NCBI RefSeq assembly: GCF_900066015.1
Contig: NZ_LN890655.1
Location: 2,520,726-2,584,725 of the forward strand
Origin: Candidatus Promineifilum breve
GTDB lineage: Bacteria > Chloroflexota > Anaerolineae > Promineifilales > Promineifilaceae
Length of the DNA stretch: 64,000 bases
Reading direction: 5' to 3'
The notes beneath the pieces were generated by a model that was not told the origin of the DNA, did not search any database, and saw only the letters and a list, made by a program, of their open reading frames with translations. Positions 3,996 to 63,800 of this stretch are shown piece after piece (within the stretch, counting starts at the first letter, position 1; the number at the start of each line of letters is the position of its first letter). A program made the position numbers and the translations under genes.

Positions 3996-5449
3996 GATTA
4001 TCATCCGATTCTCCCAAAACAGCGCTGGGCGGACACCCGAGGGGGTTGACCGGCAATCCGGCCCGCGATCTGGCGAACTCGTTCAACGTGCGGGTGGTCC
4101 TGTTCCTGGCGCTCCATGCGCCGCTGGCGCTGGCGATGGACGCGTCCCCCTGGTTCGCCACGGCCCACGGGGTGCTGGCCTTGCTCTTCGGTTTGCGGGC
4201 GGCGCTGCTGGGGCGCACGTCGCAGGTCATCTACGCCGTGGCCTATATCGCCTCGGCCGAAGTGCTATGGCGTATGTCGCGCGCTAATCTGCTCTGGGAG
4301 TACGCCAAATATGCCGTTGTGGCGATCGTCTTCGTGGCTCTCGTCGCCGAATGGGGGCGTCGGACGGAGGTGCTGCGGCTGCGCTCAGTGTGGCCGGCGC
4401 TGCTGCTGGTGGCCCTCATCCCGGCTATCGTCATCACCATCCTGCAAGTCGGCCCGGCCGAGGCCATCGACCCGATCAGCTTCAACCTGTCGAGCTATTT
4501 GGCTCTTAGCGCGCTGGGCTTCTATCTATGGGCGCGGCCGATTGACCGCGATACGACCCTGCGCCTCCTGTTGGCGATCATGGCCCCCATCGTGGGTATC
4601 ACCTTTCTGGCGGTCTACTTCACACTGACCGATCTCGATAGCCTGATCTTCCTGGGCGCGGCCAACTGGGTCACCAGCGGCAACTACGGCCCCAATCAGG
4701 TCTCCAATATGATGGGCCTCGGCGCGCTGACTGGGGTGATGCTGCTGATCCTGATCCCGCGCTCGTTGGGGGCGCGCGCTTTCATCCTGCTGCTGACGCT
4801 GGGGATGCTGGGGCAGGGCGTGCTCACCTTTTCGCGGGGCGGTATCTATAGCTTTGTGCTGGCGCTGGCGGCCTTCGGCTTCCACCTGATGAATACGCCG
4901 CGCGCCCGCAGCCGCTTCCTAATCCTATTCGGCCTGTTTGGCGGCCTGTTCCTGGTGGGCATCTACCCCTTTCTGGACGACTTCACCGGCGGGTCGCTCT
5001 CGCAGCGGTTCAGCGACCTGGACACGACCGGCCGCCTGGAGGTGGCACAGGCCGATTTGGAGGCATTTCGCGAAAACGTGATTGTGGGCACGGGCGTCGG
5101 CGAATCGACCGCGTATCATCAGCGCTATCTGGGCTATTCCGTCGCCACTCATACCGAATTTACCCGCCTGCTGGCCGAGCACGGCCTGTTCGGCATTGTG
5201 GCGACGGCCATTCTTATCTTCATGCTGGCGAAGCGCTATGTGGGCAACCAGCCCGGCCTGGGCCGCGGCCTGACGGCCGCCCTGGCCGTGTGGGCCACCA
5301 GTATCATGTTTCATAGCGCCATGCGCCTGGCCGTCATCCCGCTGGCTATCGCGTTGGGCCTGGCGCTGTGGCAGTTACAACGCCCGCCCCGGCGCGCCGC
5401 GGCCGAGAAGCCGGCGGCGAAGCCCGCCGGCGCCTCGGTTAATCGCTAG
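3983..5449 (+). CDS. O-antigen ligase/polymerase-like (Wzy_C) membrane protein
   Basis: 488 residues, almost wholly hydrophobic, with roughly 10-12 membrane segments. The block L-T-F-S-R-G-G-I-Y, followed by a larger periplasmic loop and G-V-G-E-S, is the arrangement of the O-antigen ligase / Wzy_C family (WaaL, Wzy, PglL). These enzymes act on undecaprenyl-linked glycans outside the membrane. A second start, ATG 3992, is equally possible; ATG 3983 overlaps the previous gene by 13 nt. Whether it polymerises repeats or ligates the finished chain cannot be decided from sequence. A second family member lies at 25242. Confidence 0.8.
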   Translation: MAHMRLSSDSPKTALGGHPRGLTGNPARDLANSFNVRVVLFLALHAPLALAMDASPWFATAHGVLALLFGLRAALLGRTSQVIYAVAYIASAEVLWRMSRANLLWEYAKYAVVAIVFVALVAEWGRRTEVLRLRSVWPALLLVALIPAIVITILQVGPAEAIDPISFNLSSYLALSALGFYLWARPIDRDTTLRLLLAIMAPIVGITFLAVYFTLTDLDSLIFLGAANWVTSGNYGPNQVSNMMGLGALTGVMLLILIPRSLGARAFILLLTLGMLGQGVLTFSRGGIYSFVLALAAFGFHLMNTPRARSRFLILFGLFGGLFLVGIYPFLDDFTGGSLSQRFSDLDTTGRLEVAQADLEAFRENVIVGTGVGESTAYHQRYLGYSVATHTEFTRLLAEHGLFGIVATAILIFMLAKRYVGNQPGLGRGLTAALAVWATSIMFHSAMRLAVIPLAIALGLALWQLQRPPRRAAAEKPAAKPAGASVNR

Positions 5450-42392: not shown

Positions 42393-42920
42393 GTGAGCAG
42401 TACGGGCAAGTTCAACGGTAATCGCGCGGAGGTCAAGGCGCACCGGCAGTTGTCTGTTGCGCGAGAACTGGTGCGCGGCAAGTCGCAGCGGGAGATTCGT
42501 GACGCGCTTGCGAAGGCGGAGAACGTGAACCCGAACACGGCGCGGCCGTGGTCTCTGGGTATCATCCAACGGGATTGCAAGGAACTGGAAACGCAATGGA
42601 AGGTGGCGGCGTCGACCGATATTGCTGAGGCGAAGGGGCGTCAATGGGCTGAGATTCAGGAGGCCAGGCGTGTTGCCTGGGAGCAGGGTGACATCAACCA
42701 GGTTCGGCAATTGATCAAGTTGGAGATGGAACTGCTGGGGACGGAAGCGCCGAAGAAACAGGAGGTTCGGGCGACGGTTGCGTCGTCGGGCGAGTTTGAT
42801 GGTATGAGTGATGATGAGCTACAGCGAGAGCTTGAAACCCTCACCCGGAGTACGACCGCGCTATTCGGACGCCATCGAGCGAGCGCGGCGGATTCTGCGG
42901 GAGCGGATTCAGAGGGCTAA
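42393..42920 (+). CDS. Putative terminase small subunit
   Basis: 175 residues from GTG 42393. An HTH-like segment (S-Q-R-E-I-R-D-A-L) is followed by helices and an acidic region, and it directly precedes the large subunit. These are features of phage TerS proteins that recognise packaging sites. There is no sequence signature beyond that. It overlaps the large-subunit gene by ~110 nt, so its last ~35 residues share DNA with the TerL N-terminus. Confidence 0.6.
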   Translation: MSSTGKFNGNRAEVKAHRQLSVARELVRGKSQREIRDALAKAENVNPNTARPWSLGIIQRDCKELETQWKVAASTDIAEAKGRQWAEIQEARRVAWEQGDINQVRQLIKLEMELLGTEAPKKQEVRATVASSGEFDGMSDDELQRELETLTRSTTALFGRHRASAADSAGADSEG

Positions 42921-43695
42921 GGCGCGGCGGGTGATCACTCCCGATATAGTGGCCGACTTCGCCAAGCTGCACATGCGGACGGCTGACGGTCGGGCGATTG
43001 CGCCGGCGGGGCATCATGCGCTCTGGCTGCATTTGATTTGCGATCCAGCTATCAAGCGGCTGTTGATCGTGGGAACCCCGGAGAGCGCGAAAACGACCTG
43101 GGCGTTGGCCTACGCGGCGTGTCATGTTGGATTTTTCCCGGAGCAGCCGCTCATTATCGCGGCCGTCAGTGGGCCGGTGGCGGAGACGCGGAGTATCGCA
43201 TTGAGGAACCTCGTCGAGTCGGATGAGTTTGCCCAAACGTTTCCCACCGTGCGGCCGGCGGCGGGGATGTTGTGGACAACGGCGAAATGGAGTGTGGCCG
43301 AGGAGGGGCGACCGCACGCGGGGCGCTTACACCCAACTGTCAGCGCTTATGGCACGGGCGGTAGCGTGACGGGCAGCCGGGCACAGCTGTTGATCGCCGA
43401 TGACATTCTGGACTATGACAACACGCGGACGCAGCATCAGAGGAACGTGGTGGATACTTGGTTTCACACGTCGCTGCTGCCGCGACTTATGGCGCAGACG
43501 GGCCGGGCGATTGTTATCGGGAACACCTATCATCACTCGGACACTATCGCCCTGCTCCGGCGCAGTGAAGGGTGGGTGAGCTGTCACATTCCCTTATTGT
43601 CAGAGAGCGAGGAAGTCGTTGCCTCGATTACCTACCCCTCGGATTTCACGGGACGGCCGATTGGTGTGTCGGTGGCAGGGGCGTTGCCAACATGA
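42811..43695 (+). CDS. Terminase large subunit, ATPase half (gene split by an insertion)
   Basis: 294 residues. Walker A-like G-T-P-E-S-A-K-T-T near residue 88 and Walker B L-L-I-A-D-D-I-L-D near residue 195 define the packaging ATPase. The frame ends at TGA 43693-43695, just inside a foreign insertion; the nuclease half continues at 44448. Joining at codon ACT (43690-43691 plus 44456) restores a continuous A-L-P-T-Y-R-Y-V-V-H-R. The start is uncertain: GTG 42808, ATG 42811 or ATG 42814. Confidence 0.85.
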   Translation: MMSYSESLKPSPGVRPRYSDAIERARRILRERIQRAKARRVITPDIVADFAKLHMRTADGRAIAPAGHHALWLHLICDPAIKRLLIVGTPESAKTTWALAYAACHVGFFPEQPLIIAAVSGPVAETRSIALRNLVESDEFAQTFPTVRPAAGMLWTTAKWSVAEEGRPHAGRLHPTVSAYGTGGSVTGSRAQLLIADDILDYDNTRTQHQRNVVDTWFHTSLLPRLMAQTGRAIVIGNTYHHSDTIALLRRSEGWVSCHIPLLSESEEVVASITYPSDFTGRPIGVSVAGALPT

Positions 43696-43700
43696 TCGCA

Positions 43701-44351
43701 TTAGCGGCGCGATGGTCTAAGCGGTTCGGTCAAGGCGCGGTCGACCGTCCAGCCGGACTTGAGGCGATAGAGGATGACTTCCTCGGACAGCCTTGTTATC
43801 GCCGCCCACTCGGACACGGTGCGGGTCTGGCCTTTATAGGTGATGGGACGATTCGTGCGGCGGTTGTTGCCTTGCTCAACTCGCGTGGCCCAGCGGCAGT
43901 TGCCCGGTTCGTAGTCGCCGTCGTTGTCGATGCGGTCGAGCGAATGTTCACTACTCGGCCGTGGCCCCATGTCGCTATAGAACGCCTCGAAGGAGTTGCG
44001 CCAGCGCCGGCAAACCTTGATGCCACGGCCGCCGTAGTTGGGATATTGCGCGTTTGTCGGAGTGTGGCAGCGGCGGTTCATGGCTTTCCAGGCGTCGTGT
44101 TCCGGGGTGCGACTCCGCCCGTGCTTAAGGAAGGTCATGTTCTCGGAGCGGCGGCAACCGCAACTGAGGGAGTGGCCGTTGGTCAAGGCAGAGCCTTGCA
44201 CAATGCCTTCGCGGCCGCAGTCGCAGCGGCAGAGCCAAGTGGATTTGCCGGATACTGCACCAGTGTAGCCGAGGATAGTCCAGCGACCGAAGCGCCGGCC
44301 GGTGAGGTTGTTCTTCACAGACTTGGGAACGGGTATAATCTTCGCAGTCAT
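43701..44351 (-). CDS. HNH-type homing endonuclease with zinc ribbon and NUMOD-like tail
   Basis: 216 residues. The N-terminal C-R-C-D-C-G ... S-C-G-C is the zinc-ribbon half of this phage endonuclease family. The core L-D-R-I-D-N-D-G-D-Y-E-P followed by N-C-R-W-A-T and Q-G-N-N-R-R is its nuclease motif. The C-terminus (V-S-E-W-A-A-I-T-R-L-S and Y-R-L-K-S-G-W) is a helix-turn-helix of NUMOD type. GGAGG lies 7 nt before the ATG. It should cut an uninterrupted terminase gene and drive copying of the insertion. Confidence 0.85.
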   Translation of the reverse strand: MTAKIIPVPKSVKNNLTGRRFGRWTILGYTGAVSGKSTWLCRCDCGREGIVQGSALTNGHSLSCGCRRSENMTFLKHGRSRTPEHDAWKAMNRRCHTPTNAQYPNYGGRGIKVCRRWRNSFEAFYSDMGPRPSSEHSLDRIDNDGDYEPGNCRWATRVEQGNNRRTNRPITYKGQTRTVSEWAAITRLSEEVILYRLKSGWTVDRALTEPLRPSRR

Positions 44352-44379
44352 GTTCGTACCTCCAGTACGAATGTGATGA

Positions 44380-44416
44380 GGGGACTGTCAGGCGTTTGCA
44401 GCGCTTGCCAGTCCCC
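44380..44416. repeat. Hairpin at the right part of the insertion
   Basis: GGGGACTG (44380-44387) pairs with CAGTCCCC (44409-44416); an inner GGCG/CGCT-rich segment can pair further. It lies upstream of the endonuclease gene on the minus strand and could insulate it from terminase transcription or be part of a folded intron. Confidence 0.5.
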
Positions 44417-44447
44417 ATTATTGTATCACAGCTAGAACTTAAGTTCC

Positions 44448-45206
44448 ATGCAAACTTACCGCTATGTTGTGCATCGAAATGGGCCGGCGCTTTGGCCGGA
44501 GAACAAGCCGTTGTCTGAGGTGCTAAAGTTGCGCTCTACGACGCCGGAATTGGTATGGGAGGCGGTTTACCAGGGGAATCCGACACCGGCCGGCGGATAT
44601 ACCTTCCGGCGGGAGTTCTGGACAGACGGGAACCGGTTCTCGTCTGATGGCCGGGAGTTGCGGGGGCAGATTGTGGGGAGGGTGCAGAGTTGGGACACGG
44701 CGGAAGAGGTGAAGGATACCAGCGCGTGGACGGTGTGTGTGACGGGCGAGATTCTCAACGACTATCGGTTAGCCATCCGTCACGTATATCGGGCGAGGCT
44801 GACGTTCGACGCGCTGCCGGGTCAGATCGAGAGTCTGGCGCGGCTGCACAATGAGGACAGTCTGCTACGCGGAGTGGTCATCGAAGACAAGTCGAGTGGG
44901 AAGAGCGCGCAACAGACGTTGCGAGTTACCGCCCCGGAGTGGCTGCGCGAGTTGATCTCGCCCTATCAGCCGACGGGCAGCAAGGAGGCGCGGGCGGGGG
45001 CGGCGGCGGTGTGGTGTCGAAACGGGATGGTGATGTTGCCATATCCAGGGCCAGATGTGCCGTGGTTACTTGACTTCGAGGACGAGCTCTACAGTTTTCC
45101 GCAGTCGGCTTTCGCCGATCAGGCGGATGCGTTTTCTCAACTTGTATTGTTCTGTGAGCATTATCTGGCGGCCGGGTGGCGGGCGCGAGGAGGTGGAGAA
45201 GGGTGA
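44448..45206 (+). CDS. Terminase large subunit, nuclease half
   Basis: 252 residues. R-N-G-P-A-L-W-P-E is the linker found in intact large subunits. S-W-D-T-A followed by V-V-I-E-D-K and a late F-A-D-Q-A-D-A-F carry the acidic residues of the RNase H-like headful/site nuclease. ATG 44448 lies inside the insertion, 8 nt before the proposed joint, without a clear ribosome site. The end overlaps the portal start (GTGA). Confidence 0.85.
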   Translation: MQTYRYVVHRNGPALWPENKPLSEVLKLRSTTPELVWEAVYQGNPTPAGGYTFRREFWTDGNRFSSDGRELRGQIVGRVQSWDTAEEVKDTSAWTVCVTGEILNDYRLAIRHVYRARLTFDALPGQIESLARLHNEDSLLRGVVIEDKSSGKSAQQTLRVTAPEWLRELISPYQPTGSKEARAGAAAVWCRNGMVMLPYPGPDVPWLLDFEDELYSFPQSAFADQADAFSQLVLFCEHYLAAGWRARGGGEG

Positions 45207-46819
45207 TCATTGAGAATCAGGTAGGTTGGAGAGGGCGGGTGTGGGGATGGGCGAGCGATAATCTGCGACGATATGGCGGTTTGGGGGAGGCCGCGGTAGC
45301 TGCTCAGCCGGCAGAGAGCGGGGAGATTGGCGAGCAACAGGCGGCCGAGTATGGCATCCGCTGGGCTTATGCCAGGAACAAGGGGTTGTACCGGCAGTTG
45401 AAGGCGTGGGGGCAGGTGGAACACGCCATGAAGACGGCGTGGAACCCGGTGCCGGCGGTGGTGCGGTTTTACACGGAGAACGTGCTGTTCGGCGCGCTGG
45501 ACGTGGCGCCGGAGCAGCGGTCGACGGCCGATGGCGCGGAGTCGAGCGAGCAGGAGACGGATGCGCTGGTGGGGGCGATCGGCCGGGTGCATGAGTGGTC
45601 GAACTTTGTGATGCTGAAGCAGGAGTTGGTAAAGGCGGCGGCGGTATATGGGGATGTGTTGATTAAGGTGGCCGAGCGGACCTCCCTCCCCCCAGTCCCC
45701 TCCCAAGGGGAGGGGGAGCGGGCGACGAGCGTTTATTTGCAGCAGTTGCCGCTGGGCAGCATTCGCTATTGCCGGGCGGATGAGCGGGGCATCGTGCAGG
45801 AGGTGCGGATCGACACGCCGCGGCTGACGTCAATCTTCGGCACGGCGGAGCGCGAGCACGTACTGGTGGAGATTTGGCGTAAAAGTTGGGATGGGGGTGA
45901 GGGTGGGGTGCGCTTCTATGAGGTGGAAGGCCGGCAGAACGTGGCGGATCAGGAATTGCCCGTGGCCGTTGGCGCGCAAACATTCGGCGAGCTGGGGTAT
46001 GACTTCGTGCCGGTGGTGTGGGCGCGGTGCGAAACGCCGTGGTGGGAGCAGACTGACCAGATCGACTATTACAATCTGCTGGCGCGGAAGTCGTACCGGC
46101 TGAACGTGCCGCTGGGGGTGGTGAGAGCGAACGCGACGGACAGCGAGGGGCGGCCGATGCCGGCACCGCAGGTGGATAGGAGCCGATTGCCGGCGACTTA
46201 CGAAGAGGTGGGGGATGGGGCGGCGGCGATCATGCGGTTGCCGGGGCGGACGGAGTTTGACTGGTCGAGCGGGCCGATCGACTTCGAGGCGCTGCAGCGC
46301 GACATGAGTGAGGTGCGCGAGGCGGTGGAGTTGTCGTTGCCGGAGTATCGAGTGGCCAAGATCGACGCGCGGTCGGCGATTGCGGCGAACACGCTGGAAA
46401 TGTTGCTGAAGCAGGCGACGCAGCGGGTGCTGGACGTGCGCGGGTCGTTGGAGCGGGCGCTGGTGCGGGCGCAGATGATGGCGCTGACGCTGGGGCAGGC
46501 GGCGAAACTGGAGGGGTTCGCGGCGGCCGACATCGGGACGTATGAGACGGGGGACTTTGGGCATGTGTTTGTGGAGCGGGCGGTGTTTGAGCCGGCGCTG
46601 CAAACGAAGGTGGCGGCGCTGAAGGAGCTGGCGGCGGCGCAGATTCCGACGAAGCTGGCGATGCAGATCGTGGAGTTCGCGCAGTCGGTTATTGACGCCT
46701 ATGACGACGCGGCGGCCGAGCAGGCGGGGCGAGAGCGGGCGACGCTGGCGGCGGCGCTGGTGCGGGCGCGGCAGGAAGTTGATAGTGGGGCGGCCGATAA
46801 TGGGACGACACGGCCATAG
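45203..46819 (+). CDS. Portal protein
   Basis: 538 residues from GTG 45203, preceded by GGAGGTGGAG. Length, position after the terminase and the long helical C-terminus (~370-450) fit the dodecameric portal of tailed phages. A CCCTCCC..GGGAGGG palindrome at 45681-45719 adds a Pro/Ser/Gly-rich loop (P-P-V-P-S-Q-G-E-G-E-R). Family assignment rests on context and overall pattern. Confidence 0.8.
   Translation: MIIENQVGWRGRVWGWASDNLRRYGGLGEAAVAAQPAESGEIGEQQAAEYGIRWAYARNKGLYRQLKAWGQVEHAMKTAWNPVPAVVRFYTENVLFGALDVAPEQRSTADGAESSEQETDALVGAIGRVHEWSNFVMLKQELVKAAAVYGDVLIKVAERTSLPPVPSQGEGERATSVYLQQLPLGSIRYCRADERGIVQEVRIDTPRLTSIFGTAEREHVLVEIWRKSWDGGEGGVRFYEVEGRQNVADQELPVAVGAQTFGELGYDFVPVVWARCETPWWEQTDQIDYYNLLARKSYRLNVPLGVVRANATDSEGRPMPAPQVDRSRLPATYEEVGDGAAAIMRLPGRTEFDWSSGPIDFEALQRDMSEVREAVELSLPEYRVAKIDARSAIAANTLEMLLKQATQRVLDVRGSLERALVRAQMMALTLGQAAKLEGFAAADIGTYETGDFGHVFVERAVFEPALQTKVAALKELAAAQIPTKLAMQIVEFAQSVIDAYDDAAAEQAGRERATLAAALVRARQEVDSGAADNGTTRP
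45681..45719. repeat. CCCTCCCC/GGGGAGGG palindromic repeat inside the portal gene
   Basis: A left CCTCCC-rich part pairs with AAGGGGAGGGGG. It is translated in frame. The same family lies at 47167, 51432, 51472 and 53028. Confidence 0.75.
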
Positions 46820-55364: not shown

Positions 55365-58300
55365 GTGGAGATCGCGAAGCTATACATTACGTTGGCGGCG
55401 GACGCCAGCAGCTACCAGGGGACGTTGCAGCAGGTCGACCGGGATACGATGAGCTGGGCCAGCGGGCTGGCGGATCGGATGGCGAAGACGCTGGGGACGG
55501 CCATTCTGGCGGCAGTGGCGGCGATGACGATTGCCATCGGCGGGTTCTTCGTGTCGGCGGTGGACAAGGCGGCCGATCTGGAAGCGCAGATGGATACGGT
55601 GGCGGCGTTGCTGGGGGCGACGGCCGAGGAGGCGGAGAAGCTGCGGCAGGCGACCCTTGATTTAGCCCTTGATCCACAACTGAAAGTGAGCGCGACCGAG
55701 GCGGCGCAGGCGATTGAAATGCTGGCTCAGAATGGGTTGAGCGTGGAGGAGATTCTGGGCGGGGCGGCGCGGGCGACGGTGCTGCTGGCGAACGCGACGG
55801 GGGCGGATTTCACTACGGCGGCGCGGATCGCGACGGATGCCATGTCGCTATGGGGGATGGAGGCCAGTGACCTAGAGCAGGTGGCTAACGGCGTGACGGC
55901 CGTGCTGGTGCAGTCGAAGTTTGAGGTGAACGACTACGCGCTGGCGCTGGCGCAGGCGGGTGGCGTGGCGGCAGCGGTGGGGGTGTCGTTCCAGGATTTT
56001 AACGCGACGCTGGTGGCGATTGCGCCGTATTTCGCGTCCGGTTCCGACGCGGGCACATCGTTCAAGACGATGCTGCAACGGCTCATTCCGTCGACCAACA
56101 CGGCTAAGGATGCGATGGCGGCGCTGGGGCTGATTACGGAAGAGGGGGCGAACGCATTCTTTAACGCGGACGGGTCGATGAAGGATATGGCCGAGGTGGC
56201 GGGTATCCTCCACGGCGCGCTGTCGGGACTGACTGAGCAGCAGCGGTTGCAGGCGCTCTCCACGATTTTCGGCACGGACGCGATGCGGGCGGCGGCGGCG
56301 ATGAGCCAGTTCACCGAGGAGGAGTTCCGGAACCTGATGGCGGTGATGGCGAATACGAGCGCGGCCGAAATTGCGGCGCAGCGGATGGAGAACTTCAGCG
56401 GGGCGATGGAGATTTTCAAGGGGGTCGTGGAGGGGTTGCAGTTGATGTTGGGCAACGTGCTGCTGCCCATTTTGACGGAGTTGGCGCTGTCGGCTTCGAA
56501 GCTCTTGTCGGCTTGGGGGCCACCGGTGATCGCGGTGTTCCAGAGTTTCACCGACAACCTGAGTGAGGGGATGTCGGTCATTGATGCGTTCATCGAGGCG
56601 ATCTGGGACATCGCGCCGGAGCCGGTGTTGAACGGGCTGGTGGCGTTGAGGGATCACATTTTGCCGGTGGTGGAGCGGATCGCGGAGGCCATCGCTTCGT
56701 TTGTGTCGTGGAAGGACGCGCTGCTGGCGTTTGGGTTGGTGGCGGCGTGGGCGGTGGGATCGGTGCTGTTGCCGATGCTGGCACCGATTGCGGGGATTGT
56801 GGCGGCGGTGGCGGGGTTGGCGTTGGCAATTGCGGCGGTGCGGACGGCGTGGGAGAGGGATTTCCTGGGGATTCGGACGGCGGTGGAAGGGGTGGTGGAA
56901 ACGATCGGCCGTTTCGTGGAAGCCTTCCGGGATTCGTTTCAGGATTCGGGTGACGTGATCGGGGCGCTGGTGGTGGCGTTTCAGAATTTGGTAGGGCCGA
57001 CGACTGAAGCGGGGCAAGCGTTCCTGGAGATCGGCGACAAAGTGCGGGAGATCATCGGTGTGGTGCAGGGTGTGTTCCAGCCGACGATTGACCGGATCAA
57101 GGAGGCGATTGGCGGGCTGGGGGATAGCCTGGCCCCGGTGGGCGAGAAGCTGGTCGGGCTGAAGGATACATTTTGGGGCTTGCTGCAGGCGCTGGCACCG
57201 GTAGGGGCGGCCATCGCGGCCGTCGTGGGGATTATTGCCAAGTTCCTCGGTGAGGTGCTGGCTGGGGTTATCAAGAACGCCGGAACGATCATCGGTGGCC
57301 TGGTGACGGCCGTGACCGGGGTGGTGGACGGGGTGACGAACGCGGTTCATACGCTGGTGAGCAGCGTGCAGGCCATCCTCCAGGGTGACTGGGCCGGGGC
57401 GTGGGAAGCCGCTAAGGGCTTCGTCGCCGGCTGGATTGACGCGACCCGGACGCAGTTGGAAGGGCTGGTACAGATAGTTGATGGCGTGTTGGGGGCTGTC
57501 TGGGATGCGGTAGTCAACACATTCAACGACTTGACCGGCGCGGCCCTGCCCAGCTGGGAGCAGTTCAAGCAGGCGGCGGGAGAGGCGTTCCAAGGAGTGG
57601 TCGACCGCATTCGGGAAGTGCTGGGCACGCTCCGCGAGGCGGTGCAGCCGATCATCGATTTCTTCGCGCCGACCATCGAGCGGATCGTGGATGCGTTTAG
57701 CGGTCTGGGAGACAGCCTCGCGCCGGTGGGCGAGAAGCTGGCGGGGCTGAAGGAGGCCTTTTTACGGCTAGGCGAAGCTCTTCAGCCGGTATTCAGCGTG
57801 CTGCAAACTATCGCCTCGTTCATCGGCGGCGTGTTTTTGGGAACAATCAGCAAGATAGGAGAAGTGCTGGCCGGCGTGGGTGCGGTGATAGGCGCGGCCG
57901 TGGCCGTCATCGCTAAGTTCCTAGGTGAAGTCCTAGCTGGGATCATCAACAACGCGGGCACTATCATCGGCGGGTTGGTGACGGCCGTGACTGGGGTGGT
58001 GCAAGGCATCACCAGTTCGGTACAGGCCATCGTCGATTTCGTTCGTGCTGTCCTGCAGGGGGATTGGGCGGCGGCGTGGGCGGCGGCGGCGAGTTATGTG
58101 TCGGGGATGGTCTCGGCAGTCGGGACAATTCTAGGCGGCTTGCTTCAAGTCATTGACGGCATCTTCGGGGCGATCTGGGACGCGGTCGTCAACACCATCA
58201 ATGATATTGCCGGTTCCTCGCTGGCATCTTGGGATCAATTTAAGGCCGGGGTCATCCAGAAGTTCACAGAGATCAAAGAGAGCATCACCTCGAAGGTTGA

Positions 58301-61300
58301 AGAATGGAAGAGCGCCTTTCTGACATTTCTCGACAACGTGCGGTCGCTGGATATTGGGGAGTCGATCAAGACCTTCATCACCGAAGGACTGGAGAACATC
58401 GTCGAGGCCATCCGGGATCAGGTGGCGGAATGGGTGGATGCGTTCACGGGGTTCGTGGACGACGTGCAGTCGGCCGACATCGGCCAGAGCATCGTCGATT
58501 ACATTCTGGAGGGGCTGGAAACATTCATTGACAACGTTGGCGAGACCCTGTCGGACTGGTACAGCGCGTTCGTCGATTGGGTGAGCGACATCGACTGGTA
58601 TCAGGTCGGCTACAACATCGTCGATTTCATTATCCAGGCGCTGGTCATTTTCCCGCAGGAAGTGGCGGCGACGCTGGCGGAGTGGGGGCAGGCGTTTTGG
58701 GATTGGGCGGAGAGCACGGCGGCCGACCTATGGGACGCGGGCGTCCAACTGGTGGAGAACATCATCGAGGGGCTGCGAGAGTTTCCCGGCCTGGCCTGGG
58801 ACGCGCTGAGCGAATGGGCGTCAGTGTTCTGGGATTGGGCCTCAGACACCGCGAGCGAATTGTGGGACGCGGGCGTGGAACTAGTGCGGAACATCGTGGA
58901 GGGATTGGAGGAGTTCCCCAGCGAGGCCGAGAGCGCGGTGAACAATTGGGCGCAGGTATTTTGGGACTGGGCCACGGCCACAGCGGCCGAGTTGTGGAAT
59001 GCCGGCGTGCAGATCGTGCAGAACATCGTCGAGGGATTAAAGGAATTTCCAGCGAAGGCGCAGGAAACGTTGGCGACGTGGATTACAGCCTTCGCGCAGT
59101 GGGTGGGCGGCAGCATCGCGCAACTGGTGATTATCGGCACGGCAATAGTGACACATATTGTCACCGGGTTGAAAGAGTTCTGGGTCAAGGCGGTTGTGGC
59201 AGTGTCCGGTTGGTTCCTGAGCATCAGTACGTTCGTGGCCACGAAGATCGCCTCTTTGATCGCGCTGGGCCAGTCGATTGTCCAGGGCATTATCCAGGGC
59301 ATCCAGAGTATGGCGCAGGCGGTTATCGATGCGGCCGGCTCGGTCATTCAAGGCGGCGTGGACGCGATTCGCGCCGCGCTTGGCAATCCGCATTCCCCAG
59401 CCCCCGCGCTTATTCCCCTGGGTAGTAGTATCAGCGAAGGCGTCGCCGCCGGCATTGTCCAGGGCGCGGGGGACATCATTGGAGCGATCCAGCAGGTGGC
59501 GAGCGCGGCGGAACTGGAGGGCGTGAAGGCGTTCGGCGAGGCGATGACGGCCATCGCGGAGGCTATCGGGGCGGCGCTGAGCGCGGCGCTGGATATCGGC
59601 TCGTTCGGCGGAACGGGCGAAGGGTTCGGGGCGGCGCTGGAAGCGATGGCAACCATGATGGCGGCCATTGTGACGGCCGTGGCCGAGGCGAATACGCTCA
59701 GCGTCGAGGCACTGGAGGAGCTGGGGAAATTCGTCGATGTGGCGGGCGAAATCAATGATCTGCTGGTGCAGACGGCCGACGTGACGAGCTACCTGGCCGG
59801 ATGGCGCGCGCCGGTGCTGGAGCCGGTCGTGGCGAGCATCGAAGCCCTGGCGTTCTACCTGAATCTGATCACCACAGCCCTGGCAAATGCCAATGTTTTC
59901 GGGCTGGGCACGCTGGAGGTGTTGGGCAAGTTCGTTGAAGTCGTGGGGGACATCGTGGAAATGATTGCCCCGGCAATCGACGCGTTGAACGTGCTGGGGA
60001 GGACGACGTTCCCGGATTGGGAGGCCTTCGCGCATCGGGTGGACGCGCTGGCGCCGCGACTGCAACGGCTGGTGATTGCCCTGGCGAATGCCAATATTTA
60101 CGGGCTGGGGGCGCTGGAGATTCTCGACAAATTCATCGAAGTAGTGGGAGAGATCGTGGAGGTCGTCGCCCCACTTATCGTGATGTTGAGCGCGCTGGGG
60201 AAGGCCACGTTCCCGGAGTGGGAAGCTTTCGTGGTGCGGGTGGACGCGCTGGCGCCGCGGCTGCAACGGCTGGTGATCGCTCTGGCGAATGCCAATATTT
60301 ACGGGCTGAGCACGCTGGAGGTGTTGGGCAAGTTCATTGAAGTCGTCGGGGACATCGTGGAGATGATCGCCCCGGCAATCGACGCGTTGAACATACTCGG
60401 CAATGCCACGTTCCCGGATTGGGAGGCCTTCGCGCATCGGGTCGATGCACTGGCCCCGCGGCTGCAACGGCTGGTAATAGCCCTGGCGAATGCCAATATT
60501 TACGGGCTGGGGGTTCTGGAAATTCTCGACAAGTTCATCGACGTGGTGGGGGAGATCGTGGACGTCATCGTCCCCCTTGTCGAGATGCTAAACGTGTTGG
60601 GTAACGTCACGTTCCCGGATTGGATTAGCTTCGCGCATCGAGTGGACGCGCTGGCGCCGCGACTGCAACGGCTGGTGATTGCTCTGGCGAATGCCAATAT
60701 TTACGGGCTGGGGGCGCTGGAGGTGTTGGGCAAGTTCGTTGAAGTCGTGGGTGACATTGTGGAGATGATCGCCCCGGCAATCGACTTGTTAAACATGCTG
60801 GGGAACGCCACGTTCCCGGATTGGATTAGCTTCGCGCATCGGGTGGACGCGCTGGCCCCTCGACTGCAACGGCTGGTGATTGCCCTGGCGAATGCCAATG
60901 TATTCGGGCTGGATGCGCTGGAGGTACTGAGTAAATTCGTCGAGGTCGTTGGGGAGATCATCGAAATGGTCGAGCCGGCCATCGAGGCGTTGAACGTGCT
61001 GGGCAACGCCTCGTTCCCGGATTGGGCCACCTTCGCGGCGTCGGCGGATCTGCTGGCGGCGCAATTGCAGGCGCTCGTCGGTGCGTTCGAGGCAGCGAAT
61101 CAGTGGAGCGCGGAGGCTCTGGCAGAGTTGGGAGCGTTTGTGGACGTGGTGGGCGACATCGTTGACCTGGTAGGCGACGCTATCGAGGCCTTGCTGGCTA
61201 TCGCGGCCTACAACGGGCAACTAAGCCAGGGCCAACTCGCGGCGTTTACGAGCCAACTGGTGGCGGTAGTCGCGGCGATGGCGACGGCGATGGCGCAGGC

Positions 61301-63800
61301 GGCGGCGCAGGCGGGGGAGTTGATCGAGCAGGCGGCCGACTTCGCGGAGAGCGCCGAGGCGATCCTGGACGTGGTGGAGCCGGGGATTGAGGCACTGACG
61401 GCGCTGGCCGAGTACGTAGGGGCGTCGGGGGCGGTGGTGGCGGTGTGGAGATTCGCGACCGATTTGATGATGGTTGTGGGGGCGCTGGGCATAGCGCTCG
61501 CGGCGGCTTCGGTGGAGATGGGCGCGGCGGCGGCACAGGCGGCCGAGTTTGCGGGGCACGCTGAGGACATTCTGGATGTGGTGGAGCCGGGGCTTGAGGC
61601 GCTGGCGGCGCTGGCCGAGTACGTAGGGGCGTCGGGGGCGGTGGTGGCGGTGTGGTTGTTTGCGGCTGATCTGGTGGTGATCGTGCAGTCGCTGGGGGCG
61701 GCGTTTGCGGCGGCTTCGGTGGAGATGGGCGCGGCGGCGGCACAGGCGGCCGAGTTCGCGGCGAATGCCGAGGATATCGTCAACGTGGTGGAGCCGGGGG
61801 TCGAGGCGCTGGCGGCGCTGGCGACTTACGTCTCGACGGCGGGATTGGCGGGGGCGGTGCAGACGTTCGCGGCCGATCTGGTGACGGTCATCGTGACGCT
61901 GGTGGATGCCTTGCAGCAGGCGGGGTTGCTGGCGAACCAGGCGGTGACCGAGGCGGGGGAGATGGCCGAGGCGATGGAGGACATCGTATCGGTGGTGGCG
62001 CCGGCGGTGGAAGCGGTGGTGACGCTGGTGGGGTATACGACGGTCGGTGGATTGAAGACGAACGTGCAGCAGTTCGCGGCCGATCTGGTGTTGGTGATAC
62101 AGACGCTGGTGGATGGGTTGGCCCAGGCCGGGCTGCTGGCCAGTCAGGCCGTCACCGAGGCCGGCGAGATGGCGAAGCACATCCAAGACATTCTGAAGGT
62201 CGTGGAGCCGGCGCTGCACAAGGATAACGGGGCGATCACGCTTATCGCCAAGTACGTGAGCGATGGGGCGCTGATCCAGAAGACGCAGCAGTTCACCGAC
62301 GACCTTATTGCCGTGACGCAAATCCTGGTAGATGGGCTGACGACGTCGGCGCTGGCGGCGGGCGTGGCGCTGGTCAAGGCCGGCGAGATGGCAAAGAGCA
62401 TGAAGGACCTGTTCGACGCTCTGAAGCCGGCGATGGATTCCATCGGCAGCATCGCTGAATATACCAGCGCGGCGGGGTTGGAGCAGAAGGCGCAGCAGTT
62501 CACAGATGACCTGATCGCGGTGGCAACAGTGCTGGTGACGGGGTTGACGGCGGCGGCCGACCAACTGGGGGCGGAGGCGGTGTCGGCGGCCCACTCCTTC
62601 GCGCAGACGGTGAGTTTGCTGGTCAGTCGCATTCAGGCGGTAGTTTCCAGCCTGAGCACGATGGGGGAGATCGACACGCCGAACATCGAGCCGATCCTGA
62701 CCTATATTGTGACGTCGGCGGATCAGATTACAGAGGCGTTCGCGGCGGCGGGGGACATCGGGCAGGCGGTGGCTTACGCGGAGGCGTTCCGGGCGAATCT
62801 GGCGCAGCTGGTGGGGGAAGTGCAGGCGGCGGTGGCGAGCCTAAACGCGCTGGCGGGGACGGGGACGACGGGCAGCATTGGGGCGGCGCTGGCGAATATC
62901 GCGGCGTCGTTGGAGAACATGGAAGGGGAGTTTGCAGGAGCGGGCGATGCGCTGGCCCAGGCGTTGATCGCGGCGATGGCCGGTGGTATCAGCGCGGGCC
63001 AGGGGACAGTTTTGCAGGCGCTGGATGGGGTGCTGACGGCGGCCAACAACGCGGGACTGGCGGCGGCGAGGGAGTTCGACAACGTGGGCGCGGCCATCGA
63101 CGACGCGATGGCCGATGGAATTCTGGCCGGGCAAAACCAGGTCGTGGGGGCGGTGACGCAGGTGGTCAACGCGGCGATTGCGGCCGGGTTCAATGAGGCC
63201 AAGAAGGCGGCGAGCATCGGGCAGGAGTTGATCCGGGCGGCGCTGGCGGAGATCAATGCCGGGCGCGGACAAATGGACGCGTCGGGAGAGTCGGCGGGCG
63301 GGGCGCTGATCGACGGGATGGCGCGGGCGATTCTGAATGGGAAGTCGCGGTTGGTGAATGCGATTAAGGATGCTGTCCAAGCGGCGGTGGCGGCGGCCGA
63401 GGCGGCGCTGGGGATCGCGTCGCCGTCGCGGGTGGCGTTTGAGTTGTTTGATAACTTTATGAAGTCGGCGGAGATACCGCTGGGCGACCCACAGGGGCTG
63501 GTGGGGGCGATCGGCCGATCGACGCGGGCGATGGTGGATGAGGCGGCGCGGATGATGAGCCAGGCGGCGGGGTTGTTCACGGCCCCGGTAGGGGCGTCGC
63601 CGGCAGTCATCAGTGGGGCGCAGCCGGCACGATTGACGCAGCCGGCATTGGCGGCGGCTCCCAGTCCGGCGGGGCGGCCGATGGGGCAGCCGGCACCGGT
63701 TTACAATTTCTACGGTAACTGGGTGGTCGAGGGCGTGGAGGACGGGCAAGGGCTGCTGGAGCAGCTGGCGGCCATCGCGGCGGGGGCGCGACGGCAATGA
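55365..63800 (+). CDS. Tape measure protein
   Basis: 2811 residues from GTG 55365. Residues ~50-370 are a TP901-type core (E-A-Q-M-D-T-V-A-A-L-L-G, S-F-K-T-M-L-Q-R-L-I). Several hydrophobic segments follow (~410-650). Repeats: a ~200-residue unit occurs twice (about 57040-57560 and 57800-58240); ~49-residue W-D-W-A units lie around 58680-59060; five perfect-length 67-residue units span residues ~1549-1883; and ~64-residue A-A-Q-A-A-E-F units span ~61300-62530. The C-terminal end has the G-x-A-S-P-S-R motif seen in tape measures (A-S-P-S-R-V-A). It sets tail length and is ejected with DNA. Confidence 0.93.
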   Translation: MEIAKLYITLAADASSYQGTLQQVDRDTMSWASGLADRMAKTLGTAILAAVAAMTIAIGGFFVSAVDKAADLEAQMDTVAALLGATAEEAEKLRQATLDLALDPQLKVSATEAAQAIEMLAQNGLSVEEILGGAARATVLLANATGADFTTAARIATDAMSLWGMEASDLEQVANGVTAVLVQSKFEVNDYALALAQAGGVAAAVGVSFQDFNATLVAIAPYFASGSDAGTSFKTMLQRLIPSTNTAKDAMAALGLITEEGANAFFNADGSMKDMAEVAGILHGALSGLTEQQRLQALSTIFGTDAMRAAAAMSQFTEEEFRNLMAVMANTSAAEIAAQRMENFSGAMEIFKGVVEGLQLMLGNVLLPILTELALSASKLLSAWGPPVIAVFQSFTDNLSEGMSVIDAFIEAIWDIAPEPVLNGLVALRDHILPVVERIAEAIASFVSWKDALLAFGLVAAWAVGSVLLPMLAPIAGIVAAVAGLALAIAAVRTAWERDFLGIRTAVEGVVETIGRFVEAFRDSFQDSGDVIGALVVAFQNLVGPTTEAGQAFLEIGDKVREIIGVVQGVFQPTIDRIKEAIGGLGDSLAPVGEKLVGLKDTFWGLLQALAPVGAAIAAVVGIIAKFLGEVLAGVIKNAGTIIGGLVTAVTGVVDGVTNAVHTLVSSVQAILQGDWAGAWEAAKGFVAGWIDATRTQLEGLVQIVDGVLGAVWDAVVNTFNDLTGAALPSWEQFKQAAGEAFQGVVDRIREVLGTLREAVQPIIDFFAPTIERIVDAFSGLGDSLAPVGEKLAGLKEAFLRLGEALQPVFSVLQTIASFIGGVFLGTISKIGEVLAGVGAVIGAAVAVIAKFLGEVLAGIINNAGTIIGGLVTAVTGVVQGITSSVQAIVDFVRAVLQGDWAAAWAAAASYVSGMVSAVGTILGGLLQVIDGIFGAIWDAVVNTINDIAGSSLASWDQFKAGVIQKFTEIKESITSKVEEWKSAFLTFLDNVRSLDIGESIKTFITEGLENIVEAIRDQVAEWVDAFTGFVDDVQSADIGQSIVDYILEGLETFIDNVGETLSDWYSAFVDWVSDIDWYQVGYNIVDFIIQALVIFPQEVAATLAEWGQAFWDWAESTAADLWDAGVQLVENIIEGLREFPGLAWDALSEWASVFWDWASDTASELWDAGVELVRNIVEGLEEFPSEAESAVNNWAQVFWDWATATAAELWNAGVQIVQNIVEGLKEFPAKAQETLATWITAFAQWVGGSIAQLVIIGTAIVTHIVTGLKEFWVKAVVAVSGWFLSISTFVATKIASLIALGQSIVQGIIQGIQSMAQAVIDAAGSVIQGGVDAIRAALGNPHSPAPALIPLGSSISEGVAAGIVQGAGDIIGAIQQVASAAELEGVKAFGEAMTAIAEAIGAALSAALDIGSFGGTGEGFGAALEAMATMMAAIVTAVAEANTLSVEALEELGKFVDVAGEINDLLVQTADVTSYLAGWRAPVLEPVVASIEALAFYLNLITTALANANVFGLGTLEVLGKFVEVVGDIVEMIAPAIDALNVLGRTTFPDWEAFAHRVDALAPRLQRLVIALANANIYGLGALEILDKFIEVVGEIVEVVAPLIVMLSALGKATFPEWEAFVVRVDALAPRLQRLVIALANANIYGLSTLEVLGKFIEVVGDIVEMIAPAIDALNILGNATFPDWEAFAHRVDALAPRLQRLVIALANANIYGLGVLEILDKFIDVVGEIVDVIVPLVEMLNVLGNVTFPDWISFAHRVDALAPRLQRLVIALANANIYGLGALEVLGKFVEVVGDIVEMIAPAIDLLNMLGNATFPDWISFAHRVDALAPRLQRLVIALANANVFGLDALEVLSKFVEVVGEIIEMVEPAIEALNVLGNASFPDWATFAASADLLAAQLQALVGAFEAANQWSAEALAELGAFVDVVGDIVDLVGDAIEALLAIAAYNGQLSQGQLAAFTSQLVAVVAAMATAMAQAAAQAGELIEQAADFAESAEAILDVVEPGIEALTALAEYVGASGAVVAVWRFATDLMMVVGALGIALAAASVEMGAAAAQAAEFAGHAEDILDVVEPGLEALAALAEYVGASGAVVAVWLFAADLVVIVQSLGAAFAAASVEMGAAAAQAAEFAANAEDIVNVVEPGVEALAALATYVSTAGLAGAVQTFAADLVTVIVTLVDALQQAGLLANQAVTEAGEMAEAMEDIVSVVAPAVEAVVTLVGYTTVGGLKTNVQQFAADLVLVIQTLVDGLAQAGLLASQAVTEAGEMAKHIQDILKVVEPALHKDNGAITLIAKYVSDGALIQKTQQFTDDLIAVTQILVDGLTTSALAAGVALVKAGEMAKSMKDLFDALKPAMDSIGSIAEYTSAAGLEQKAQQFTDDLIAVATVLVTGLTAAADQLGAEAVSAAHSFAQTVSLLVSRIQAVVSSLSTMGEIDTPNIEPILTYIVTSADQITEAFAAAGDIGQAVAYAEAFRANLAQLVGEVQAAVASLNALAGTGTTGSIGAALANIAASLENMEGEFAGAGDALAQALIAAMAGGISAGQGTVLQALDGVLTAANNAGLAAAREFDNVGAAIDDAMADGILAGQNQVVGAVTQVVNAAIAAGFNEAKKAASIGQELIRAALAEINAGRGQMDASGESAGGALIDGMARAILNGKSRLVNAIKDAVQAAVAAAEAALGIASPSRVAFELFDNFMKSAEIPLGDPQGLVGAIGRSTRAMVDEAARMMSQAAGLFTAPVGASPAVISGAQPARLTQPALAAAPSPAGRPMGQPAPVYNFYGNWVVEGVEDGQGLLEQLAAIAAGARRQ
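60009..61013 (+). repeat. Five 201-bp tandem repeats in the tape measure gene
   Basis: The marker TTCCCGGA-TTGG/GTGG recurs at 60009, 60210, 60411, 60612, 60813 and 61014, always 201 bp apart. Each unit encodes 67 residues; flanking partial units lie on both sides. Divergence between units is modest, so the array is fairly young or homogenised. Confidence 0.92.

What the first reader, a model, noticed from the sequence alone, without database searches (positions are those of the whole stretch)
42811..45206. Terminase large-subunit gene split by a homing-endonuclease insertion that supplies its own stop and start
Seen: the ATPase half ends in TGA 2 nt into the insertion; the nuclease half restarts at ATG 44448, 8 nt before the right joint; AAC flanks both sides. 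Removing 764 bp restores a smooth reading P-T-Y-R-Y-V-V-H. The endonuclease is on the opposite strand with its own ribosome site. Known: endonuclease genes often sit in conserved phage genes, usually inside introns or inteins. Inference: either an intron-less homing element that made a two-polypeptide terminase, or a group I intron with other joints (for example after GGT near 43665 and after ATG 44450).
Basis: partly seen in the sequence, partly recalled or inferred. Interest (0 to 1): 0.66.

Follow-up and report, generated by a model that had tools for sequence, protein, structure and literature searches.

The report
Endonuclease gene inside a two-gene terminase
In this prophage of a Chloroflexota bacterium the DNA-packaging motor protein is already encoded as two separate genes, as in at least 15 related phages, and a selfish endonuclease gene has slipped into the gap between them instead of cutting one gene in two.

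Summary
In detail: a TerL ATPase gene (42811-43695, +), an HNH endonuclease gene on the opposite strand (43701-44351) and a TerL nuclease gene (44448-45206, +). The main interpretation does not. The nearest relatives without the endonuclease (L001/L002 at 75% and L003 at 67% identity in the nuclease half) have the same two terminase genes, lying 2 nt apart or overlapping by 4 nt. In a survey of 21 related rows all have two genes, split at the same linker, and group together on both halves' trees. In the 13 rows without an insert the genes are always out of frame, with mixed offsets, so neither splicing, an intein nor a conserved frameshift joins them. The split therefore came first. The HNH gene is a later insertion into the seam, found only in the window and its sister prophage in Promineifilum (L102). 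Rfam finds no intron there. Both halves model as complete TerL domains with catalytic residues conserved, so a motor built from two polypeptides is the likely mode. Other relatives carry different cargo in the same seam. Two-gene TerL is already described for Arthrobacter cluster AY phages, and free-standing homing endonucleases for T4-like phages, so this is a new variant of known kinds.

The parts
42393..42920 (+). probable terminase small subunit gene; its last ~110 nt overlap the start of the ATPase gene in another frame
   Evidence: Position just upstream of TerL, and a long overlap conserved in relatives. No convincing Pfam or PHROG match, so the assignment is by position and inference.
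42811..43695 (+). TerL ATPase gene (294 aa): Walker-A-like PESAKTT, Walker B LLIADD
   Evidence: phrog_38 E=6e-33 over profile 272-477; AF2 pLDDT 90.2; Foldseek PDB matches to TerL ATPase domains (PhiV-1, P74-26, T4 gp17)
43696..44447 (.). 752-nt segment between the terminase stop and start codons; present here and in sister prophage L102, absent in L001 and L003
43701..44351 (-). HNH endonuclease gene (216 aa), opposite strand to the packaging operon
   Evidence: phrog_374 E=8e-71, phrog_3377 E=7e-60; Cys pairs and the YEPGNCRW motif conserved in 82 rows; dN/dS about 0.1 against L102
44353..44371 (-). inverted repeat TTCGTAC-TGGAG-GTACGAA around the HNH Shine-Dalgarno (GGAGGT = 44358-44363); kept in L102 by a G-U pair
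   Evidence: not more stable than shuffles (z about -1 or weaker), so only suggestive
44380..44416 (.). strong hairpin in the leader of the HNH gene, between HNH and nuclease genes
   Evidence: -33 kcal/mol for 44370-44447, z=-4.35, 0 of 200 shuffles; conserved in L102; only copy in the genome; not a T-tailed terminator
44448..45206 (+). TerL nuclease gene (252 aa), RNase H-like; D83, E146 and D224/D227 invariant
   Evidence: phrog_38 E=8e-32 over profile 483-705; Terminase_6C; A3 alignment; AF2 pLDDT 85.5, Foldseek to TerL nucleases of D6E, HCMV, HSV, E217, G20c
45203..46819 (+). probable portal protein gene, next in the operon (listed ORF starts at GTG 45176)
   Evidence: 71% identical to the corresponding gene of L001, 67-68% to L102; no convincing Pfam or PHROG match of its own; assignment by position

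Best explanation
The phage belongs to a lineage whose large terminase was already encoded by two consecutive, probably translationally coupled genes, one for the ATPase motor and one for the RNase H-like nuclease. A free-standing HNH homing endonuclease gene later entered the seam between them, on the opposite strand, in the common ancestor of this prophage and its sister in another Promineifilum species. It splits no gene and leaves no intron: both terminase genes keep their own stop and start. Shown: the two-gene state in uninserted relatives, the nested position of the insertion, and purifying selection on HNH. Inferred: that the two proteins assemble in trans into a working motor, and that the HNH protein cuts the empty seam or a flanking terminase gene of rival phages so that repair copies the gene in.
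For: Uninserted relatives L001 (gap 2 nt) and L003 (ATGA overlap) have the same two genes. HMM survey: 21 of 21 close rows have separate ATPase and nuclease ORFs, 13 with genes adjacent or overlapping. All 13 are out of frame, 8 with offset +2 and 5 with +1. Split rows form one side of a branch in both trees (nuclease 92/89, ATPase 86/95), with window+L102 beside L001 and L003. HNH occurs in 2 of 21 rows and once in the genome. HNH dS 0.45 is close to that of its flanks (0.46-0.51) and dN/dS is 0.10, so it is an old resident under selection. Each half models as a full TerL domain with catalytic residues conserved. No intron model matches.
Against: No RNA, protein or phage-production data; the prophage could be defective, although its head and tail genes look intact, including a 2811-aa tape measure. 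No empty allele closer than 75% identity was found, so the exact insertion ends and the cleavage site are unknown. Homing activity was not tested. The number of relatives is modest and some rows are near-copies.
Confidence: 0.88

Rival explanations
1. One reading: the HNH insertion itself broke an intact terL and supplied the new stop and start (genes-in-pieces, like Aeh1 nrdA with mobE).
For: Both terminase halves abut the insertion; HEGs frequently lie beside terminase genes (PMC10448857).
Against: Uninserted relatives are already split at the same point; the split clade is older and wider than the insertion.
Confidence: 0.03
2. A much older endonuclease or other insertion made the original split at the base of the clade and was then lost; the present HNH is a re-invasion of the same seam.
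For: The seam is a repeated insertion point: inserts in 8 of 21 rows against 3 of 21 at the nuclease/portal junction and 0 of 19 at the small-subunit/ATPase junction.
Against: No remnant seen in the 13 uninserted seams; simple fission at a domain linker needs no insertion.
Confidence: 0.15
3. A group I or II intron (or intein) with the HNH on the opposite strand; the halves are joined by splicing.
For: Removing 764 nt gives a smooth-looking junction on paper. A spliced terminase is known in ICP1 (PMC10448857).
Against: No Rfam intron match at gathering score or E<=10. Uninserted relatives have no joined frame to restore. The HNH is antisense, so no intein reading exists.
Confidence: 0.02
4. 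The HNH protein is a working part of the packaging machine (like HK97 gp74) and not a selfish gene.
For: It sits inside the packaging operon and is under purifying selection. The HK97 HNH acts with the terminase at cos (discussed in PMC10448857).
Against: Absent from 19 of 21 relatives with the same terminase; opposite strand to the operon.
Confidence: 0.08

Closest known systems
Two-gene large terminase of Arthrobacter cluster AY phages (BillyTP, BlueShadow; PMC11920828, PMC12820723)
   Same: ATPase and nuclease domains in two consecutive genes (overlapping in BillyTP), between small terminase and portal.
   Different: No detectable sequence homology of either half, so the split is probably independent; BillyTP has no insertion in the seam.
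Free-standing HNH/GIY-YIG homing endonucleases of T4-like phages (mob, seg genes; PMC2988022)
   Same: Intron-less endonuclease gene in an intergenic site between essential genes. segD is likewise opposite in strand to its neighbours.
   Different: Different HNH subfamily (phrog_374/3377); homing not demonstrated here.
Aeh1 mobE in nrdA (genes-in-pieces)
   Same: An HNH gene embedded in an essential phage enzyme that is then made as two polypeptides (from general knowledge; the mobE/nrdA papers are cited in PMC2988022).
   Different: There the insertion itself split the gene; here the split is older than the insertion.
HEGs near terminase genes (PMC10448857)
   Same: Terminase neighbourhoods are frequent HEG sites (35% of T5orf172 and 14% of IPA-HNH neighbourhoods).
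   Different: ICP1's terminase is rejoined by splicing; no sign of that here.

Membership tests
Free-standing HNH homing endonuclease | HNH nuclease domain with conserved motif | tested here: met
   phrog_374 E=8e-71; R140, Y147, E148, P149, G150, N151, C152, R153, W154 each at least 98% conserved in 82 rows
Free-standing HNH homing endonuclease | Present in some and absent in other otherwise colinear relatives | tested here: met
   in window and L102, absent in L001 and L003 and 17 other rows
Free-standing HNH homing endonuclease | Not inside an intron or intein | tested here: met
Free-standing HNH homing endonuclease | Cleaves the empty allele and is copied into it | not testable with these tools
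   needs protein and phage crosses
Genes-in-pieces made by a homing endonuclease (Aeh1 nrdA type) | Relatives without the endonuclease have the gene intact | tested here: not met
   all 13 uninserted close relatives have two genes
Group I/II intron | Recognisable intron RNA core | tested here: not met
   no Rfam intron match, E<=10, permissive filters
Two-gene TerL | Complete ATPase and nuclease domains in two consecutive genes | tested here: met
Two-gene TerL of cluster AY phages | Sequence homology to AY halves | tested here: not met
   best E about 0.06-0.2 with HMMER --max
HNH packaging cofactor (HK97 gp74 type) | Conserved with the terminase across relatives | tested here: not met
   2 of 21 rows

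The most novel reading that the evidence does not exclude
In this lineage the packaging motor is a standing partnership of two separate proteins working in trans, an ATPase and an exchangeable nuclease, and the junction between their genes is a repeated landing site for cargo (homing endonuclease, methyltransferase, membrane protein) because an insertion there breaks nothing.
Probability: 0.45. Interest if true: 0.55.

Novelty: new variant of a known kind. Interest (0 to 1): 0.38.

Why it matters
TerL is normally one polypeptide whose two domains must cooperate. A whole lineage that makes them as separate proteins would allow direct tests of whether the covalent link matters for packaging and genome cutting. 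It also explains how an endonuclease gene can sit 'inside' an essential gene without harm: the seam was open beforehand. And it warns that two-fragment terminases next to an HNH gene should not be read as interrupted genes without checking uninserted relatives.

Tried and rejected
Intron: Rfam at gathering score and E<=10, nothing relevant. Programmed frameshift: rejected, offsets are mixed. AAC target duplication: not conserved in L102. Recent homing with co-conversion: the terminase genes of window and L102 are 90-92% identical while the portal is 68%, but synonymous divergence is similar (0.45-0.51 against 0.59), so no recent conversion tract is claimed. RBS-sequestering hairpin: an inverted repeat surrounds the HNH SD, but it does not beat shuffles and the SD is about half paired, below the mean of the HNH loci. 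Other copies of HNH or of the leader hairpin in the genome: none. A closer empty allele: not found in viral or genome contigs. In the phage collection the best hits are about 30% identical, annotated as terminase large subunit. HNH against solved structures: none. A literature search for 'split terminase' found nothing.

Full report
What is there. The window holds a prophage head module. An ORF at 42811-43695 and an ORF at 44448-45206, both on the + strand, match consecutive parts of the same terminase large-subunit profile (phrog_38 positions 272-477 and 483-705), so they are the ATPase and nuclease halves of TerL. Between them, on the - strand, lies a 216-aa HNH endonuclease gene at 43701-44351 (phrog_374) with its own GGAGGT ribosome site.

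What it is not. The closest relatives of the nuclease half in viral contigs are L001 (=L002, 75%) and L003 (67%). Both lack the HNH gene, and both already have two genes: in L001 the ATPase ends with TAG at 3996-3998 and the nuclease starts at ATG 4001; in L003 they overlap as ATGA. HMMs of each half, run over the fetched loci, found 21 rows with separate ORFs, 13 of them with the genes adjacent or overlapping. In those 13 the two frames always differ, by +2 in eight and by +1 in five. No splicing, intein or conserved frameshift can therefore be what normally makes one protein. Farther relatives (L004-L006, L098-L100, L114-L117, L120, L140) are single ORFs of about 480-545 aa. The split was there first, and the HNH insertion did not make it.

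History. On trees of each half the split rows make one side of a branch (nuclease 92/89, ATPase 86/95). The window pairs with L102, a prophage in 'Promineifilum sp.' MAG contig JAIBAS010000046.1, which has the same insertion with a 92% identical HNH. L001 and L003 sit just outside. One gain of HNH in the ancestor of window and L102 is the simplest reading. HNH has diverged in step with its flanks (dS 0.45 against 0.51 and 0.46) under purifying selection (dN/dS about 0.10), so it has been resident a long time and kept functional. There is one copy in the genome.

The seam as an insertion point. Eight of 21 rows carry inserts between the halves: HNH (window, L102); a putative membrane protein gene plus two small genes in two prophages of one genome of the same family (L096, L097); a 0.5-kb insert with a DUF6527 protein (L126, L127); about 1.5 kb with a DNA methyltransferase on the - strand (L135, phrog_757); and 2.9 kb with a large unknown ORF (L132). 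As a rough control, gaps over 300 nt occur in 3 of 21 at the nuclease/portal junction and in none of 19 at the small-subunit/ATPase junction. The rows are not independent, so this is suggestive only.

How it likely works. Both halves model as complete domains: ATPase pLDDT 90 with PDB matches to phage TerL ATPases, nuclease pLDDT 85 with matches to TerL nucleases of phages and herpesviruses. The Walker-type motif ESAKTT and the nuclease acidic residues are invariant across the split rows. The most likely mode is two proteins, made from coupled genes, that assemble at the portal as a motor in trans (inference). The HNH gene interrupts that coupling; here the nuclease has to start on its own ATG. 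The HNH is most likely a homing endonuclease that cuts rival phages lacking it (inference from family; homing not tested). A strong hairpin at 44380-44416 (z=-4.35 for 44370-44447, conserved in L102, unique in the genome) lies between the divergent starts; it may insulate the two transcription units (speculation).

Modularity. The nearest fused relatives of the nuclease half, L112 and L113 (49-50%), carry an ATPase of another family (phrog_2 / Terminase_6N) that the ATPase HMM of the split clade does not hit. So the nuclease domain has been swapped between ATPases at least once. That fits a loosely bound partner, but the direction is unresolved.

Compared with what is known. Two-gene TerL is reported for most Arthrobacter cluster AY phages (PMC11920828, PMC12820723); the halves of the one examined, BillyTP, show no detectable homology to these. 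Free-standing endonucleases between essential genes, even on the opposite strand (T4 segD), are known (PMC2988022), and terminase neighbourhoods are common sites (PMC10448857). The combination, a two-gene TerL lineage with an endonuclease in its seam, I did not find described in the papers searched. It is a new variant of known kinds, and the 'gene split by a homing endonuclease' headline should be dropped.

Noticed in passing
window 42811-42920; also L001 3087-3220, L003 1496-1611, L102 2316-2422: The upstream (probable small terminase) gene and the ATPase gene overlap by about 110-135 nt in different frames, and a long overlap is seen across most of the split-terminase clade.
   Followed up: partly
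L112 1000-2307, L113 1557-2825: Chimeric single-ORF terminases: a phrog_2/Terminase_6N ATPase fused to a nuclease of this clade (49-50% identical), i.e. a TerL domain swap.
   Followed up: partly
L096 5408-5920 (-) and L097 1076-1717 (+): Two prophages of one genome share the seam layout and two small genes, but carry different putative membrane proteins as first cargo gene. L096's has a weak PADLOC hit to a DRT-associated membrane protein.
   Followed up: no
L135 4894-5541 (-): A DNA methyltransferase gene sits antisense in the same terminase seam (phrog_757).
   Followed up: no
window 44380-44416: A very stable hairpin in the leader between HNH and the nuclease start, conserved in L102, single copy in the genome, no T-tail.
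   Followed up: partly
window 55365-63800: A 2811-aa tail tape measure protein with internal repeats of a 'VEVVGDIVEMI..LAPRLQRLVIALANANIYGL' unit.
   Followed up: no
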